59,278 bases of DNA, from NCBI GenBank assembly GCA_001603115.1, contig LVBG01000030.1, positions 1-59,278 of the forward strand. The letters run 5' to 3'. A model generated the notes under the pieces. It saw nothing but the letters and a program-made list of their open reading frames with translations, was not told where the DNA came from and did no database searches. Positions 8,160 to 19,234 of the stretch are shown here, piece by piece (the first letter of the stretch is position 1; each line of letters begins with the position of its first letter). This stretch comes from Spirochaetales bacterium Spiro_05 (GTDB lineage: Bacteria; Spirochaetota; Spirochaetia; Sphaerochaetales; Sphaerochaetaceae). The translations under genes and the position numbers were made by a program.

Positions 8160-8233
<74 letters not shown>

Positions 8234-12962: not shown

Positions 12963-14459
12963 ATGAACACATACCAGGTACTCACTGCGCTTGCCTTTGC
13001 CCTGTATCTCGGCCTTATGCTGGCCATCGGGTTCTTCACCTTTCGTAAGACAAAGTCCACCAGTGACTACTTTCTTGGAGGTCGATCAATCGGACCTTGG
13101 TTTACTGCACTCAGTGCAGAAGCCTCGGACATGTCCGGCTGGCTCTTGATGGGACTTCCCGGCCTTGCCTACTTCACCGGCCTGCAGGAAGCCTTCTGGA
13201 CGGCTGTAGGTCTTCTGGTCGGAACCTACCTCAACTGGTTGCTGGTTGCCAAGCGGATGCGCAAGTACACCATCCATGCGAAAGACTCCATCACCATTCC
13301 CGAATTCCTGACCAACCGTTTCCACGACAAATCGAAGGTGCTGCAGACCATCAGCTCGCTCATCATCCTGGTCTTCTTCGTGGTCTACACAGCCAGCGGC
13401 TTCCTTGCCTGCGCTAAGCTCTTCACGGCAGTCTTCGGCATGAACTACTATGCAGCGCTCATCCTTGGCGTGGTAGTCATTCTCGGTTACACCCTGCTTG
13501 GTGGGTATCTTGCTGTAGTTGCAACCGACTTCCTGCAAGGCAGCCTGATGTTCATTGCCCTTGTCGCCACCGGCATGATCGCCCTCTTTGCCATCGGCGG
13601 CCCTGTCCATACCTTTACCGAGCTTGCCAAGTTCGGCGAGCACTTCATCAACCCCTTCATCACTCCTCCTGGAACGACGTACGGGTTCTTGCAGATACTC
13701 AGTGCCCTTGCTTGGGGCCTTGGCTATTTCGGCATGCCCCACATCCTCATCCGCTTCATGTCCATTCGCAGCAATTCCGAGGTTAAGACCAGTCGCCGTA
13801 TCGCAATGGTGTGGGTAACCATAGCCATGGCAGCCGCACTCTTGGTCGGTGTCGTGGGGAAAATCTTCCTGCTGCCTCTCGAATACGCCTCACAAAGTGC
13901 TGCTGAAGCAGTCTTCATTGCCAGTATGCAGAAGATATTCCCGACCTTCATCGCCGGCTTCTTCCTCTGCGCCATCCTGGCAGCCAGCATGAGCACCGCC
14001 GACAGCCAGCTGCTTGTCGCCTCCTCAGCGTTCAGCAAGGATGTCTACAAGGCACTTCTGAGAAAGGATGCCTCCGACAAGGAGACCCTGTTGGTCAGTC
14101 GCATCACCGTAGTGGTGATCACCATCATCGCCATCTTCCTTGCCATGGATCCAAACTCATCCATCTTTGATGTCGTCTCCTATGCATGGGCAGGATTCGG
14201 AGCTACCTTCGGACCGGTCATCCTCGCTTCGCTGTTCTGGAGAAAGGCCACCAGAAACGGGGCTGTTGCAGCCATGGTCGGCGGTTTCTTGACTGTCGTC
14301 ATCTGGAAGCAGCTCTCCGGTGGGCTCTTTGATGTGTATGAACTGCTTCCCGGCTTCATCATCGCCTCCATCATCATGATTGTCTTCAGCCTCCTGGAAA
14401 AGGAACCCGATCCAGTGATGCTTGCAGATTTCGATGCCTTTACGGCAATCGAAGACTGA
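12963..14459 (+). CDS. putP: Sodium/solute symporter, PutP (proline) type
   Basis: 498 residues, about 13 membrane segments, matching PutP in length. 'DYFLGGRSIGPWFTALSAEASDMSGWLLMG' (residues ~30-60, broken here only for quotation) carries the Na+ and proline site region, and 'FFLCAILAASMSTADSQLLV' is the SSF signature. It imports proline or a related amino acid with Na+. ATG 12963 sits behind GGGGGGAGC; an in-frame ATG at 12936 would add nine unlikely residues. Monocistronic, with a strong terminator. Confidence 0.88.
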   Translation: MNTYQVLTALAFALYLGLMLAIGFFTFRKTKSTSDYFLGGRSIGPWFTALSAEASDMSGWLLMGLPGLAYFTGLQEAFWTAVGLLVGTYLNWLLVAKRMRKYTIHAKDSITIPEFLTNRFHDKSKVLQTISSLIILVFFVVYTASGFLACAKLFTAVFGMNYYAALILGVVVILGYTLLGGYLAVVATDFLQGSLMFIALVATGMIALFAIGGPVHTFTELAKFGEHFINPFITPPGTTYGFLQILSALAWGLGYFGMPHILIRFMSIRSNSEVKTSRRIAMVWVTIAMAAALLVGVVGKIFLLPLEYASQSAAEAVFIASMQKIFPTFIAGFFLCAILAASMSTADSQLLVASSAFSKDVYKALLRKDASDKETLLVSRITVVVITIIAIFLAMDPNSSIFDVVSYAWAGFGATFGPVILASLFWRKATRNGAVAAMVGGFLTVVIWKQLSGGLFDVYELLPGFIIASIIMIVFSLLEKEPDPVMLADFDAFTAIED

Positions 14460-14465
14460 AGGTGA

Positions 14466-14493
14466 GCCGGGGTTCTTCCCCGGCATTTTTTTT
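14466..14493 (+). terminator. Terminator of putP
   Basis: GCCGGGG-TTCTT-CCCCGGC (14466-14484) followed by A and eight T. Confidence 0.92.
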
Positions 14494-14523
14494 GACTTTT
14501 TCCCCAATTGCGTAGAAAAGCGG

Positions 14524-14552
14524 TTGACGCATTGCCGTGAGGAAACTATACT
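14524..14552 (+). promoter_or_regulatory. Promoter of the methionine leader and metY-metA
   Basis: TTGACG (14524-14529), 17-base spacer, TATACT (14547-14552). Transcription would start near 14559, leaving a leader of about 250 bases before metY. Confidence 0.8.
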
Positions 14553-14585
14553 GCTTCAAAATCCAGCCTTTAGGTAGGATATTTT

Positions 14586-14681
14586 CTTGGAGGAGGCACA
14601 CTATGATGCAGATGCAAAACAGCACTGATTCCTGTGATCCTATGATGTGCCGCAACGCACTCGCCTAAGAATTCCTCCAAG
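14586..14681 (+). promoter_or_regulatory. Long-range pairing that can cover the leader-peptide ribosome-binding site
   Basis: CTTGGAGGA (14586-14594), which contains the leader peptide's Shine-Dalgarno sequence, is perfectly complementary to TCCTCCAAG (14673-14681), which begins five bases after the leader stop codon. A ribosome ending the leader peptide would sit over the second arm, so translation and this pairing should exclude each other. Function is inferred. Confidence 0.5.
14603..14668 (+). CDS. Met/Cys-rich leader peptide upstream of metY-metA
   Basis: A 21-residue reading frame that starts MMQMQNSTDSCDPMMC and ends at TAA 14666-14668. Five of 21 residues are Met and two are Cys. GGAGGAGG (14589-14596) lies 6 bases before the ATG, a near-ideal initiation site, and the promoter at 14524-14552 puts it about 44 bases from the mRNA start. 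The two downstream genes make methionine, and the sulfur they use also feeds cysteine, so a ribosome-stalling attenuator that reads Met (and perhaps Cys) supply is the natural reading. I know of no described leader of this sequence. No SAM-binding riboswitch core is visible in the same leader. Confidence 0.65.
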   Translation: MMQMQNSTDSCDPMMCRNALA

Positions 14682-14738
14682 GTACTTCCATGAAACAAGC
14701 AAAACATCCCCGCTGTGGTTCGGTAACCGACCACATGC

Positions 14739-14805
14739 GATGCACCTGGCCATATTCGCTGCCAACACAGGCTTTCGTCTGTGCACTCTTCATACCAGGA
14801 GCATC
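14739..14805 (+). promoter_or_regulatory. RNA stem that sequesters the metY ribosome-binding site
   Basis: GATGC-A-CCTGG (14739-14749) pairs with CCAGG-A-GCATC (14795-14805): ten base pairs around one A-A mismatch. The 3' arm contains the metY Shine-Dalgarno AGGA (14797-14800) and ends 2 bases before the ATG at 14808. A second bulged hairpin at 14711-14739 (TGTGGT/ACCACA with CGG/CCG) abuts it. No T-run follows, so control would act on translation. Confidence 0.55.
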
Positions 14806-14807
14806 CT

Positions 14808-16121
14808 ATGTCAACAATCAACCACACCAACCATTTTGAAACCCTCGCCCTGCATGCAGGACAGGAAACAGCCGACCCCACCACCGGTGCACGAGCGGTT
14901 CCCATCTACCAGAGCACCAGTTATGTCTTCGAATCCTGTGCGCAAGCAGAAGCCCGCTTCAACCTTTCGGAGCCGGGAAATATCTACAGCCGCCTTTCCA
15001 ACCCTACCCAGGATGTCTTTGAGGCACGCATCGCCGCCCTAGAAGGGGGGATCGGCGCATTGGCAACTGCAAGCGGATCGGCAGCCATCACCCTGACGAT
15101 CCTCAATCTTGCCAAGCAAGGCGAGCACATCGTAAGTGCCCAGACCATCTACGGAGGCACGTACAACCTCTTTGCCAACACCCTTACCGAGTGGGGCATC
15201 ACCACCACCTTCGTGGATGTTTCCGATCTTGCAAAGGTACGCAAGGCGATCAAGGCCGAAACCAAGGCCCTCTTTGTTGAGACAATCGGAAACCCGAACG
15301 CCACCTTGTGTGACTTGGAACAGCTTGCCCAGATTGCCCATGAGCACAAGATCCCGTTGGTAGTGGACAATACCTTTGCTACCCCTTACTTGGTTCGACC
15401 GATCGAGTACGGAGCAGATATCGTAGTACACTCGGCAACGAAGTTCATCGGTGGCCATGGGACTGCCCTTGGAGGGGTTATCATCGACAGCGGCAACTTC
15501 TCTTGGGAAGAAAGCGGAAAATTCCCCTCCATCACCGAGCCCAATCCCAGCTACCATGGACTGAGTTTCAGCAAAGCAGTAGGAAAGGCTGCCTGGATAG
15601 CCAAGGCCCGGGCCGTCTTGCTGCGCGATACCGGAGCCTGTCTCGCACCATGGCACTCCTTCCTCTTCCTTCAAGGATTGGAAACACTGCCCTTGCGTGT
15701 TGAGCGCCATGTACAGAACAGCCTGAAGATTGTTGAGTTCCTCAATGCCCACCCAACGGTGGATGCGGTACGCCACCCCAGTCTTCCTGACAACCCCTAT
15801 CATGCGCTGTATGAGCGATATTTCCCGAAGGGAGGGATCAGCATCTTCACCTTTGACATCAAAGGAAGCGAAGAGGATGCGAGGACGTTCATCGACTCTC
15901 TCAAGATCTTCAGTCTCTTGGCAAATGTTGCAGACCTCAAGTCTTTGGTCATCCATCCGGCAACTACCACCCACTCCCAGCTCTCCGAGGAGGAGAAGAG
16001 AAGCCAGGGCATCAGAGGCACCACCATCCGCCTCTCCATTGGCTGTGAGCACATCGACGATCTGATTGCTGATCTTGAAGGGGCTTTCTCCCAGGTACAG
16101 GGAGGCAACACATGCCAGTAA
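14808..16121 (+). CDS. metY: O-acetylhomoserine sulfhydrylase
   Basis: 437 residues, the usual length of the O-acetylhomoserine (thiol)-lyase branch of Cys/Met-metabolism PLP enzymes. The PLP lysine is Lys212 in '[18 protein letters not shown]'; '[14 protein letters not shown]' and '[14 protein letters not shown]' are family motifs. It makes homocysteine from O-acetylhomoserine and sulfide. ATG 14808 is chosen because AGGAG precedes it; an in-frame ATG at 14781 would lie in the leader RNA. The stop overlaps metA by 10 bases. Sulfide may also come from cysteine turnover. Cystathionine pathway genes are not present here. Confidence 0.92.
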
Positions 16122-17047
16122 CCATACCCAAAGACCTGCCATCAGGAGCAGTCCTGAAGGAAGAGAACATCTTCTTCATGACGAGCGAACGGGCCATCCA
16201 CCAAGATATTCGTCCTTTGCAGATTGCCATCCTCAACCTGATGCCGAACAAGAAAAAGACCGAAGAGCAGTTTTTGCGACTGCTGGGCAATACAGCCCTG
16301 CAGGTGGAGGTGACGTTTCTCACCACCGCAAGCTATGAGAGCAAGAACACCCCTCGCTCCTATCTGAAGACATTCTACAAGACATTCGACGAGATCAAGG
16401 ATGATCGCTTTGATGCCTTGATCGTTACCGGAAGTCCGGTGGAGACTCTTGCATTTGAGCACGTTGCATACTGGAATGAACTGGAAAAGATTCTTGACTG
16501 GGCAGAGCAGCATGTCTACTCCTCCCTGTTCGTCTGCTGGGCAGCCCAAGCAGCGTTGTACCACCACTACGGAATCGGCAAGCAACTGCTCCCCTCCAAG
16601 CTCTTCGGGGTGTACAGCCATACCGTCCTCGATGCCAAACACCCCTTGGTGCGAGGCTTCGATGACCGGTTCCGTGCTCCCCACTCCCGCCACACCGCCA
16701 TCGATGAGGCAAAAGTAAGAAAGAACAGCCACTTGAAGGTGCTCTGCGAATCAGAGGAGGCGGGAATCTATCTGATCACCAGCAAGGATGGAAGGAAGGT
16801 ATTCATCACCGGCCACAGTGAGTATGACAAGCAGACCCTGCATGATGAGTACCAACGAGATCTGAAAGCAGGCAAACCCATCAGCAAGCCGGTGGGCTAC
16901 TACCTTGGTGATGATGAGTCATCGCCTGTGCAGATGAGCTGGAGAGGACATGCCAACCTGCTGTTCACCAACTGGTTGAACTACCATGTCTACCAGGGAA
17001 CCCCCTATCATCTGGAAGAACTGGGAAAGAGGGCACAGCAGAGCTGA
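16112..17047 (+). CDS. metA: Homoserine O-acetyltransferase (MetA type)
   Basis: 311 residues aligned residue-for-residue with E. coli MetA numbering: catalytic Cys142 ('FVCWAAQAALYH'), His235 and Glu237 ('TGHSEYD'). Position 111 is Glu ('GSPVETLAFE'); in this family Glu111 goes with acetyl-CoA use and Gly111 with succinyl-CoA, so the enzyme should make O-acetylhomoserine, exactly the substrate of the preceding sulfhydrylase. It is annotated as succinyltransferase in many genomes by name only. Coupled to metY by a 10-base overlap; its 3' end overlaps the convergent gene by 40 bases. Confidence 0.92.
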   Translation: MPVTIPKDLPSGAVLKEENIFFMTSERAIHQDIRPLQIAILNLMPNKKKTEEQFLRLLGNTALQVEVTFLTTASYESKNTPRSYLKTFYKTFDEIKDDRFDALIVTGSPVETLAFEHVAYWNELEKILDWAEQHVYSSLFVCWAAQAALYHHYGIGKQLLPSKLFGVYSHTVLDAKHPLVRGFDDRFRAPHSRHTAIDEAKVRKNSHLKVLCESEEAGIYLITSKDGRKVFITGHSEYDKQTLHDEYQRDLKAGKPISKPVGYYLGDDESSPVQMSWRGHANLLFTNWLNYHVYQGTPYHLEELGKRAQQS

Positions 17048-17727
17048 GTCATGCGCTGTTTCAGATGAGCGATTGTTTCATCACCGATGAAGCTGAACTC
17101 ATCTGAACCAACCCCTGCTGCCCAGTTGATGCTGTAGGCAAGGCTTGCTGTGCAAATCCCTGCCTCACGGAGCAGTGTCACCTCAGTGGCCAGTGTCATG
17201 CCCACCACATCGGCTCCAAGTGTGGAGAGCATGCGAATTTCGGCACATGTTTCCAAACGGGGGCCGTTGGTGCAGGCATACACCCCTGCATCAACGAGGG
17301 ATCGATCAAGGGCGAGCAACCTTCGGTTGAGCTCCGCATCGAAGATTCGGTCCATCGGGATATGCACCACCTGCTTCTCACCACCGGTGAAGAAGGTATG
17401 CTCCCTTGTACCACCGGTAAGGTCGATGAAATCGCTGACAAGCCCCACCTGCCCCACTCCAAGCTTTTCGGATATCGAACCGACTGCATATATTCCGATT
17501 GCCTCATCAACACCGAATTGGGCCAATGCAGAAACATTGGCGCGATAGTTGATCAAATGAGGTGGCAAGGAGTGAGCGGAACCATGGCGTGGAAGGAAGA
17601 TCAGATGATCCATCTCATCTTCCCCGATGAACAGTGTCACACTCCCATACTCGGTTTGGACCAATTGTTGGCGCAAGGAGAAGAGATCAAGCGAATCGAC
17701 TCCGGTTCCCCCAATGATTGCTTTCAT
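17008..17727 (-). CDS. Methylthioadenosine phosphorylase-like purine nucleoside phosphorylase
   Basis: 239 residues of the MTAP/PNP trimeric family. Visible motifs: the N-terminal 'IIGGTGVDSL', 'FLPRHGSAHSLPPHLINYRAN' (split here: the phosphate/ribose region), 'TNGPRLETCAEIRML' and 'VVGMTLATEVTLLREAG'. The GMT triplet resembles the 6-oxopurine or inosine-type branch, so adenine versus hypoxanthine specificity is open. By context it cleaves 5'-methylthio-nucleosides to methylthioribose-1-phosphate. Start is coupled by ATGA to the MtnA-like gene. Somewhat short against ~265-290 for typical members. It converges on metA with a 40-base overlap. Confidence 0.82.
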   Translation of the reverse strand: MKAIIGGTGVDSLDLFSLRQQLVQTEYGSVTLFIGEDEMDHLIFLPRHGSAHSLPPHLINYRANVSALAQFGVDEAIGIYAVGSISEKLGVGQVGLVSDFIDLTGGTREHTFFTGGEKQVVHIPMDRIFDAELNRRLLALDRSLVDAGVYACTNGPRLETCAEIRMLSTLGADVVGMTLATEVTLLREAGICTASLAYSINWAAGVGSDEFSFIGDETIAHLKQRMTQLCCALFPSSSR

Positions 17728-18725
17728 GTGTAGCTCCTTTGGATCTGATCAGGTTGCAAAATGCCTTTCGGACAGACAATCGAAGTGACAAGAGCGGGAG
17801 GAATGATATCAAAGGCCGGATAAAGAGCCTTGATGCCTTCCATCGTGGTAGGCATATCCATGCATCGGGTAACCTCGGAGGCTGGACGCATCTCCATCTG
17901 TACATCAGAGGCACTCTTCTTGGTCGTATCCGGGGAGATGGAGAATGCATGATAGGGGACATGGTAGGCATGTGCTGCAAGCGCGTTGGCAAGCGTCCCC
18001 ACCTTGTTCACCACCGTGCCATCCATGCAAACCAAGTCAGCCGCCGTCATATACAAATCAACGTTCCCTTGGGAAATGCAGCTTGCTCCCATCCCATCGG
18101 TGATGATCGAAACATCTATGCCCATCTCTGACAAGGAGGGGGCAGTGAGCCTTGAGCCTTGCAGGTAGGGTCGTGTCTCGGGAACCAGGACACTCACCTG
18201 CTTGCCATCTCTCTGAGCATAGAGCAGGGAGAGCAGGAAGGTGTGTTCTGCAAAGCAAGTGGTCAACACCACTGAACGCTCTCCGATGAGGGTGCTGCCC
18301 AACCTTCCCAACTGCTCATAGAGCTCGGAAAAGGAGTGCAGGATCTGGGAAACCTGTACTTCAACATGTTCAGCAAGATTTCGCTTCTCTTCTGCAAGCA
18401 GGGTCAGCAGTTCACCGAGCACCCGTTTCATGGTGGTGTTGGTGGGCCGGCTCTCGATCAGGAGGCGTGCAGCGTCCTTCAGGTCATCTATGGTGAGCGA
18501 GGAGGCCTTGCTTCGGGCGACATGCACCAAGGTGGTCAGGGCGACTTCAAGGGGGCCTCCACCCTGGGTCACCATGTTCTTGAGAGCAAGCGCAACCTCT
18601 TCAACCGTTGAGCAGGTCTCAAACCGACGGGTGAAGGGGAAGACGCGTCTATCACCGATCAGGATCTTGCCACCCTCGAGACGGCAGATGTTCTCACTTC
18701 TCAACAGGTACGGAAGGTCACTCAT
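17724..18725 (-). CDS. MtnA/eIF-2B-alpha family protein (methylthioribose-1-phosphate isomerase-like)
   Basis: 333 residues. The isomerase catalytic pair appears conserved: Cys157 in 'SVVLTTCFAEHTF' and Asp210 in 'VSIITDGMGASC', with 'NKVGTLANALAAHAYHVPY' at ~240-258. The N-terminal RxG.P loop is altered to 'TQGGGPLEVA', and overall similarity looks low, so it may act on a related pentose-1-phosphate. It lies between a deaminase and an MTA phosphorylase-like gene with ATGA/TGATG overlaps, which supports nucleoside or MTA salvage. Expected product: methylthioribulose-1-phosphate. Later salvage enzymes are not in this window. Confidence 0.75.
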   Translation of the reverse strand: MSDLPYLLRSENICRLEGGKILIGDRRVFPFTRRFETCSTVEEVALALKNMVTQGGGPLEVALTTLVHVARSKASSLTIDDLKDAARLLIESRPTNTTMKRVLGELLTLLAEEKRNLAEHVEVQVSQILHSFSELYEQLGRLGSTLIGERSVVLTTCFAEHTFLLSLLYAQRDGKQVSVLVPETRPYLQGSRLTAPSLSEMGIDVSIITDGMGASCISQGNVDLYMTAADLVCMDGTVVNKVGTLANALAAHAYHVPYHAFSISPDTTKKSASDVQMEMRPASEVTRCMDMPTTMEGIKALYPAFDIIPPALVTSIVCPKGILQPDQIQRSYT

Positions 18726-19234
18726 CAGTGGTTCCAGAACTCCTTGTGGTCGGCGAAGATGGCATGCAGCAACTGTTCATCGGTGGCAGGTCCCACCACT
18801 TCCATGTCTTTCTGCCCATAGGAGAGCACCACATCACTGGGAAGATCGAAGGTAGGATTCTGCACATCGCTTCCGGTAAGTTCCAACAGCTGTTTCTCGG
18901 TGATGCCGAAGACAAGGCGGCGTACATTGGTCCAGTACAGGGCTCCGGTGCACATCACACAGGGCTCAGCGTTGGTGTAGAGCGTACAGGAAGCAAGGAA
19001 GTCGGCATCATAGCGTTTGCTCGCCTTGAAAAGCAGAAGCGTCTCTGCATGCATGGCTGACCCCCCTTCCTCATAATCGTTTTCCTGTTCCATCAGGATG
19101 GTTCCATCCTTATCAGCAAGCAAGGCTCCAAAGGGATGATTGCCTTTCTGTTTGGCCTCATGGGCAATACGAACGGTTTCATAGAGCAGATGGATATCCT
19201 GATCACTCATTTCCTTGCGACTGATGGTGGGCAT
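18725..19234 (-). CDS. Zinc-dependent nucleoside/base deaminase (CMP/dCMP-guanine deaminase family)
   Basis: 169 residues. Zinc ligands and the catalytic Glu are clear: HAE at 62-64 and PCVMC at 91-95, spaced as in the cytidine-deaminase fold (guanine deaminase, tRNA adenosine deaminase, riboflavin deaminase). It is the first gene of a three-gene salvage operon; its stop overlaps the next start (TGATG). Deamination of a purine nucleoside before phosphorolysis would match the GMT-type phosphorylase two genes on, but the substrate is not proven. AAGGAG precedes the ATG. Confidence 0.82.
   Translation of the reverse strand: MPTISRKEMSDQDIHLLYETVRIAHEAKQKGNHPFGALLADKDGTILMEQENDYEEGGSAMHAETLLLFKASKRYDADFLASCTLYTNAEPCVMCTGALYWTNVRRLVFGITEKQLLELTGSDVQNPTFDLPSDVVLSYGQKDMEVVGPATDEQLLHAIFADHKEFWNH

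What the first reader, a model, noticed from the sequence alone, without database searches (positions are those of the whole stretch)
14559..14810. Met/Cys-rich leader peptide as a candidate new attenuator of methionine biosynthesis
Between a strong promoter (14524-14552) and metY there is a 21-codon frame, 14603-14668, with an ideal GGAGGAGG site. It encodes 5 Met and 2 Cys, including two MM pairs, and precedes the genes that make methionine from O-acetylhomoserine and sulfide. Its own ribosome-binding site is perfectly complementary (9 bp) to sequence five bases after its stop codon. No SAM riboswitch core is present. Amino-acid leader peptides are classic for Trp/His/Leu; I do not know one for Met in spirochaetes. 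What the stalled ribosome switches is not settled.
Basis: partly seen in the sequence, partly recalled or inferred. Interest (0 to 1): 0.82.

Follow-up and report, generated by a model that had tools for sequence, protein, structure and literature searches.

The report
Two-peptide switch controlling methionine synthesis
Ahead of a methionine-making gene in Sphaerochaeta-like bacteria lie two tiny conserved coding stretches and RNA folds that probably let a ribosome stalled for lack of methionine switch the gene on, and similar peptides sit before methionine genes in many gut Clostridia.

Summary
The 21-codon Met/Cys-rich frame at 14603-14668 is real. It recurs ahead of metY in 23 of 26 genus genomes and in one genome of another genus; the three exceptions have no metY match or a cut metY. 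Over 24 loci it is 16-21 codons, always in frame, with 3-6 Met.

The RNA explains the layout. uORF1's ribosome site pairs with the lead-in to uORF2, and bases directly after uORF2's key Met pair with metY's ribosome site; both helices show compensatory changes. No terminator or Rfam element was found. I read this as a two-step translational attenuator, laid out like ermA's two-leader control, with stalling at Met codons as signal (inferred).

Similar peptides carrying CGA-AUG (RxNFRxGRM, GxDRM, MCCRM) precede metY in 32 of 75 mostly clostridial loci, and one type precedes metQ in three others. No significant Pfam or NCBIfam match. Nothing is shown experimentally; the sensed molecule and homology between phyla remain open.

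The parts
14524..14552 (+). promoter, -35 TTGACG and -10 TATACT
   Evidence: L003-L008 keep TTGAC and TATACT
14561..14580 (+). P1, 5' stem-loop ATCCAGCC..GGTAGGAT
   Evidence: L021, L023 and L024 form a 6-pair stem in another register
14586..14594 (+). P2 5' arm CTTGGAGGA, overlapping the uORF1 ribosome site (14589-14596)
   Evidence: 7-9 of 9 pairs in 14 of 14 aligned leaders; one pair changed GC to AU in 5 rows
14595..14600 (+). inner P2 5' arm GGCACA
   Evidence: 6 of 6 pairs in 14 of 14, never varies, so no covariation evidence
14603..14668 (+). uORF1, MMQMQNSTDSCDPMMCRNALA*
14646..14651 (+). inner P2 3' arm TGTGCC, inside the Met-Cys codons
14673..14681 (+). P2 3' arm TCCTCCAAG, overlapping the uORF2 ribosome site AAGG (14679-14682)
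14690..14839 (+). uORF2; conserved core MKQAKHPRCGSVTDHM is 14690-14737; in this subclade the frame runs on past the metY start to a stop at 14837-14839
14742..14749 (+). P4 5' arm GCACCTGG, just downstream of the key Met codon (14735-14737)
   Evidence: 7 of 8 pairs with CCAGGAGC read; duplex -17.0, z -3.8
14795..14802 (+). P4 3' arm CCAGGAGC, the metY ribosome site
14808..16121 (+). metY, O-acetylhomoserine sulfhydrylase
   Evidence: TIGR01326, 620 bits
16112..17047 (+). metA, homoserine O-acyltransferase, overlapping the end of metY
   Evidence: NF047918, 459.3 bits against a cut-off of 460.5

Best explanation
The metY-metA mRNA of Sphaerochaeta carries a two-stage translational attenuator. 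Helix P2 pairs the uORF1 ribosome site with the lead-in to uORF2, and helix P4 hides the metY ribosome site. When methionine is short, a ribosome slows on the early Met codons of uORF1 and covers the P2 5' arm, so uORF2 can start. A ribosome held at the conserved Met of uORF2 (GSVxDHM or SVKDRM) covers the P4 5' arm, so metY is freed. When methionine is plentiful both helices re-form and metY is off. Supported by comparison: the two peptides, their positions, the pairings, and no terminator-like site. Inferred: translation, stalling, Met (or Met plus Cys) as signal, the order of events and the ON/OFF sense. uORF2 residues are conserved beyond Met, so I think the nascent peptide itself slows the ribosome and sharpens the response.
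For: Both peptides together ahead of metY in the 23 genus genomes whose metY start is readable and in G306; one strong match each per genome (the models were built from 17 of these loci). uORF1 always in frame, 2-4 Met in the first six codons in 24 of 24; synonymous fraction 0.248 against 0.136, 3 of 500 shuffles as high. uORF2 synonymous fraction 0.47 against 0.17, 0 of 500. Helices: 87% of cells paired against 37-45% when slid; 21 cells changed on both sides against 7.0, 0 of 500. Duplex energy with the metY ribosome site: -11.5 for the 22 bases after the key Met against -4.5 to -6.8 for windows starting 18-66 bases earlier. Similar clostridial peptides before metY and metQ with the same placement. 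No terminator-like site, no Rfam element.
Against: No expression or ribosome data. In 8 of 22 distinct leaders (L008, L017, L018, L019, L020, L022, L024, L113) P4 does not beat 95% of shuffles, and L017, L019 and L020 show no signal there. P2 looks imperfect or weak by eye in L019, L020, L022 and L113, which were not in the counted alignment. In 4 of 24 loci, the window included, uORF2 has no stop near the Met and runs over the metY start, so simple release after Met does not apply there. Further pair types do not exceed shuffles (228 of 500) and pairs changed on both sides do so only weakly (32 of 500). The inner P2 helix never varies. Pairwise codon counts treat related sequences as independent. 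Part of the uORF1 Met-Cys conservation may be RNA pairing.
Confidence: 0.6

Rival explanations
1. Ligand-induced arrest: free methionine or SAM acts on the ribosome carrying the uORF2 nascent chain (as tryptophan does with TnaC) and arrests it; the metabolite rather than charged tRNA is sensed.
For: uORF2 residues are conserved beyond Met. The codon after the key Met is UGA in 10 and CGA in 12 of 24 loci, both slow steps as I recall. In the clostridial peptides the codon before Met is CGA in 41 of 44 distinct hits.
Against: With P4 directly after the Met, arrest would turn metY on by its own end product, the wrong sense for biosynthesis, unless arrest on uORF1 is the repressing step.
Confidence: 0.2
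2. RNA-only element: a metabolite- or protein-binding leader whose short frames are incidental.
For: Invariant AUGUGCC and its pairing with GGCAC and a recurring 5' stem-loop.
Against: In-frame length changes of uORF1 and synonymous bias in both frames; no Rfam match; the spacer between the two frames varies from 18 to 175 bases without keeping a multiple of three.
Confidence: 0.08
3. Plain translational coupling: the uORFs load ribosomes that reinitiate at metY, with no sensing.
For: In the window uORF2 ends 29 bases past the metY start codon; 4 of 24 loci overlap metY in this way.
Against: In 20 of 24 loci uORF2 ends 45-94 bases before the metY start, and the peptides keep specific residues and Met.
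Confidence: 0.12

Closest known systems
ermA/ermB two-leader-peptide translational attenuators
   Same: Two short frames and hairpins that hide ribosome sites; one of two published ermA models has stalling on the first frame activate translation of the second (passages read, PMC8274638; PMC8615237).
   Different: Those sense macrolides and control a methylase; here a methionine gene, Met/Cys codons and unrelated peptides. The same paper says the interplay of the two ermA frames is not clearly understood.
Amino-acid ribosome-mediated attenuators (ilvB motif, cysS uORFC-8-2 motif; trp, his, leu recalled)
   Same: Leader peptide enriched in the amino acid of the pathway (ilvB in PMC11109978, cysS in PMC8632094; passages read).
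   Different: Those two work with a terminator; the Sphaerochaeta leader shows none. Type A clostridial metY leaders do look like this class.
fthC uORF candidate of Streptococcus
   Same: The authors suggest methionine could act on a uORF through initiator tRNA (PMC11109978, passage read).
   Different: One uORF, a terminator-like third hairpin, another gene, and the start codon as the sensed codon.
TnaC arrest peptide
   Same: Short leader peptide on which free tryptophan stalls ribosomes (abstract start in a listing).
   Different: No sequence relation tested; it controls a tryptophanase operon.
mgtCBR tandem attenuators of Salmonella
   Same: Two short frames in one leader (abstract start in a listing).
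   Different: Transcription of another kind of operon is controlled; no sequence relation tested.

Membership tests
Ribosome-mediated amino-acid attenuator | coding leader frame ahead of the biosynthetic operon | tested here: met
   by comparison only: frame kept in 24 of 24 loci, synonymous bias
Ribosome-mediated amino-acid attenuator | leader enriched in codons of the pathway product | tested here: met
   3-6 Met in 16-21 codons of uORF1; uORF2 has only its start and key Met in the window core
Ribosome-mediated amino-acid attenuator | terminator and antiterminator (classical transcriptional form) | tested here: not met
   no terminator-like site in 14500-14830
Translational attenuator (ermC/ermA-like layout) | main-gene ribosome site hidden by a helix whose other arm a stalled leader ribosome would cover | tested here: met
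   P4; 14 of 22 distinct leaders pass the single-sequence test, 8 do not
Translational attenuator (ermC/ermA-like layout) | ribosome stalling in the leader frame | not testable with these tools
   needs toeprinting or ribosome profiling
SAM or other known riboswitch, T-box | match to the family covariance model | tested here: not met
Clostridial CGA-AUG leader peptide group (defined here) | CGA before the key Met | tested here: not met
   2 of 24 Sphaerochaeta-type loci have CGA before Met, the others CAC, CAT or CGT
Clostridial CGA-AUG leader peptide group (defined here) | shared peptide motif | tested here: inconclusive
   the strict Sphaerochaeta motifs match none of the 78 other metY loci; looser resemblance (RCNSIKDRM with RHNYRFDRM or RSIIKGIDRM) was judged by eye

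The most novel reading that the evidence does not exclude
A cross-phylum class of methionine-responsive arrest leader peptides, fixed on a CGA-AUG (or AUG followed by UGA, CGA or UGY) decoding step, controls metY and the methionine transporter gene metQ by unmasking their ribosome sites, and Sphaerochaeta evolved a two-peptide cascade from it.
Probability: 0.4. Interest if true: 0.85.

Novelty: new variant of a known kind. Interest (0 to 1): 0.72.

Why it matters
Methionine is an awkward amino acid to sense by attenuation, because initiation itself needs it, and my paper searches (listings only, capped, open-licence library) showed no described methionine leader-peptide attenuator apart from the initiator-tRNA suggestion for fthC. 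Here is a compact, conserved candidate with two peptides and covarying helices. The clostridial peptides add a regulon-like pattern (metY and metQ) with an almost fixed codon pair, CGA-AUG, which makes codon-pair-assisted amino-acid sensing directly testable in cultivable bacteria.

Tried and rejected
Rfam searches for a riboswitch or T-box found nothing in the leader. In 19 clostridial loci with the short frames and 20 further metY loci (five of these later proved to carry a CGA-AUG frame) only tRNAs matched.

A first exact pattern for uORF2 over 392 phylum genomes was too narrow (it excluded Gly GGA and Arg AGA) and found only the window itself. A uORF1 pattern matched 15 of 139 family genomes and brought in G306.

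Models R1 and R2 over 139 family genomes found no genuine locus beyond those already known; both were built from 17 of these loci, and with this many genomes the stricter filters lose weak matches. Weak R1 hits in G461 (inside a gene on inspection) and G489 (E 0.1, near a cysE-like gene) were judged chance. Weak R2 hits from E 0.001 upward, mostly partial, were not followed.

A resemblance of the uORF2 motif to the plant CGS1 MTO1 arrest region (recalled) was dropped: one paper search, no sequence test.

In one search the reversed control pattern gave 10 hits in 291 genomes against 27 forward matches in 25 genomes. Three forward matches (L249, L252, L267) lack CGA and a met gene behind them and were set aside as chance; the other 24 have CGA-AUG and a metY or metQ gene downstream. 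In one search the control gave none in 24 genomes.

My rank for the CGAATG hexamer in the notebook (second) was wrong: it is third by score, after TTGACA and CTATTG.

Full report
What is there. Downstream are metY (14808-16121, TIGR01326, 620 bits) and metA (16112-17047, NF047918, 459.3 bits, just under its cut-off of 460.5). No Rfam family matches 13000-17000 at E up to 1.

Conservation of uORF1. A DNA search of 26 genus genomes, the window's own included, matched 23; each of the 23 has the frame ahead of metY. A pattern search of 139 family genomes added G306 of another genus. Of the three genus genomes without it, G006 and G022 have no metY match at E up to 1e-100 and G015 has metY cut at a contig start. 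Over 24 loci (18 distinct sequences) uORF1 is 16-21 codons long, always in frame, with 3-6 Met and 1-2 Cys and 2-4 Met in the first six codons. On gap-free columns the synonymous fraction of codon differences is 0.248 against 0.136 in column shuffles, 3 of 500 as high. Covariance models of the two peptide regions, built from 17 of these loci, gave one strong match each in those 24 genomes and no further genuine locus in 139.

The second peptide. A motif search free in length found a second short frame between uORF1 and metY in 22 of the 23 genus loci; L018, with a deviating motif, and L113 were added by a pattern that fixes the core at 16 codons. The core is MKQAKHPRCGSVTDHM in the window, MTRSPRIRCNSIKDRM in G007, MKQAKHPRNGASTDHM in G005. 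Over 18 distinct cores differences fall mostly on third positions (1157, against 471 and 551) and the synonymous fraction is 0.47 against a shuffled mean of 0.17, 0 of 500 as high. In 20 of 24 loci the frame ends at or within four codons of the key Met, 45-94 bases before metY; in 4 of 24, the window included, it runs past the metY start. The codon after the key Met is UGA in 10, CGA in 12 and another codon in 2 of 24 loci.

RNA structure. On an alignment of 14 of the 24 leaders (A3) I counted four helices that I named myself after single-sequence folds. 87.0% of cells pair, against 37-45% when partners are slid by 1-3 columns; 21 cells have both sides changed against 7.0 in shuffles (0 of 500); the covariation score is 0.174 against 0.113 (0 of 500). 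Weaker measures: pairs changed on both sides 6 against 3.9 (32 of 500), further pair types 16 against 15.3 (228 of 500). P2 pairs the uORF1 ribosome site with the lead-in to uORF2 (7-9 of 9 pairs in all 14; CUUGGAGG or CUUGAAGG). Its inner part, GGCACA with UGUGCC inside the Met-Cys codons, never varies. P4 pairs bases just after the key Met with the metY ribosome site (GGU/ACC, GAA/UUC, GUUG/CAAC variants); L021, L023 and L024 pair in a register shifted by one. RNAalifold on the separate regions found only the inner helix for uORF1 and nothing for uORF2. Among the five long leaders, left out of A3, L017 has a 9-base P2 by eye; P2 in L019, L020, L022 and L113 looks weak or imperfect.

P4 placement. 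Across 22 distinct leaders the mean duplex energy with the metY ribosome site is -11.5 for the 22 bases after the key Met and -12.1 for the overlapping window six bases earlier, against -4.5 to -6.8 for windows starting 18-66 bases earlier, and -7.3 and -3.8 for windows starting 6 and 12 bases later. 14 of 22 beat 95% of mononucleotide shuffles; L008, L017, L018, L019, L020, L022, L024 and L113 do not. The leader has no terminator-like site.

Similar peptides elsewhere. In other genera of the family, 22 metY loci were inspected and 19 had a readable upstream region; six show a single frame that resembles uORF2 to varying degree, best in G481 (MNRKQTTMLFRCSSVRDRMRA) and in G482 and G351 (RYGSVRSSM). 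Of the 80 best metY loci kept from 574 (mostly Clostridia by record title), 78 lie outside Sphaerochaeta and 75 of these have at least 230 bases upstream. The hexamer CGAATG occurs in 30 of 75 with 5.0 expected, third by score after TTGACA and CTATTG; 32 of 75 have it in frame in a frame with a purine-rich lead-in, for which no chance figure was computed. Two types appear: RxN[FY]RxGRM, GxDRM or LNDRM (type B), and MCCRMLISRAY (type A), with a terminator shown for L100. L111 has a Met/Cys-rich first frame followed by a terminator and a type B second frame, the same order as in Sphaerochaeta.

A type B pattern open to every Arg codon matched 14 of 24 genomes, chosen mostly because they carry the frames (so no prevalence), and 25 of 291 genomes of the class around G509, with 10 hits for the reversed control. 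Of the 45 loci so collected, 36 lie ahead of metY, 3 ahead of metQ, 2 ahead of other lipoprotein genes that look like amino-acid binders, 1 at a contig end, and 3 are chance. The metQ naming rests on NCBIfam matches of N-terminal fragments below the cut-offs (E 1e-6 to 6e-4) and on reading the full frames. The codon before Met is CGA in 41 of 44 distinct hits, against 5 of 88 at the two other Arg positions. The bases after this Met pair with the gene's ribosome site more than earlier windows (-8.0 against -3.2 to -5.3, n = 36; 14 of 36 beat 95% of shuffles).

Interpretation. The anatomy fits a two-stage translational attenuator: a slow ribosome on uORF1 keeps P2 open so uORF2 is translated, and a ribosome held at the key Met of uORF2 keeps P4 open so metY is translated. 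A model of this kind is one of two proposed for ermA (passage read in PMC8274638). Methionine as signal follows from the codons and genes and is inference. Whether the ribosome waits for Met-tRNA or is arrested through its nascent chain cannot be told here; the conserved residues favour a contribution of the chain. The clostridial peptides share position, R-M, gene and P4 placement with uORF2, but the strict Sphaerochaeta motifs match none of the 78 other loci and only 2 of 24 loci of the Sphaerochaeta type have CGA before Met, so I do not file them as one family.

Novelty. Ten of these peptides have no NCBIfam match, and Pfam gives one insignificant hit (E 0.28). Four clostridial peptide strings occur in no paper held (Sphaerochaeta strings were not searched). 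Searches for methionine leader peptides and uORFs gave no description in the rows listed (25 of 174, 2 of 2, 30 of 44 and 15 of 2,093 papers shown); the library holds open-licence papers only. The nearest statements read are the fthC uORF idea in PMC11109978 and the cysS uORF in PMC8632094 (passages).

Noticed in passing
L100 (2163-2399), also L053, L077, L086, L089: Clostridial metY leaders with a Met/Cys-rich peptide (MCCRMLISRAY or a close variant); in L100 a GCCCGGGAG/CTCCCGGGC terminator whose first arm is by eye also complementary to the coding part, a classical attenuator layout.
   Followed up: partly
L244, L268, L274: The RxNFRxGRM peptide precedes a metQ-like methionine-binding lipoprotein gene instead of metY.
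   Followed up: partly
L230-L274: The codon before the key Met is CGA in 41 of 44 distinct hits while the other Arg positions vary; the codon after it is UGY in 20 and a stop in 16 of 42. Unexplained.
   Followed up: partly
L209, L211, L214, L217, L220, L221: Single uORF2-like frames ahead of metY in other genera of the family; in L209, L211, L214 and L220 their ribosome site is by eye complementary to that of metY (GGTTCC with GGAACC).
   Followed up: partly
window 17008-19234, minus strand: Genes that look by eye like methylthioadenosine phosphorylase, a methylthioribose-phosphate isomerase relative and a deaminase lie convergent to metA, possibly methionine salvage (names recalled, not tested).
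   Followed up: no
window 8160-8233: A tRNA gene, the only Rfam match in the window at gathering scores.
   Followed up: no
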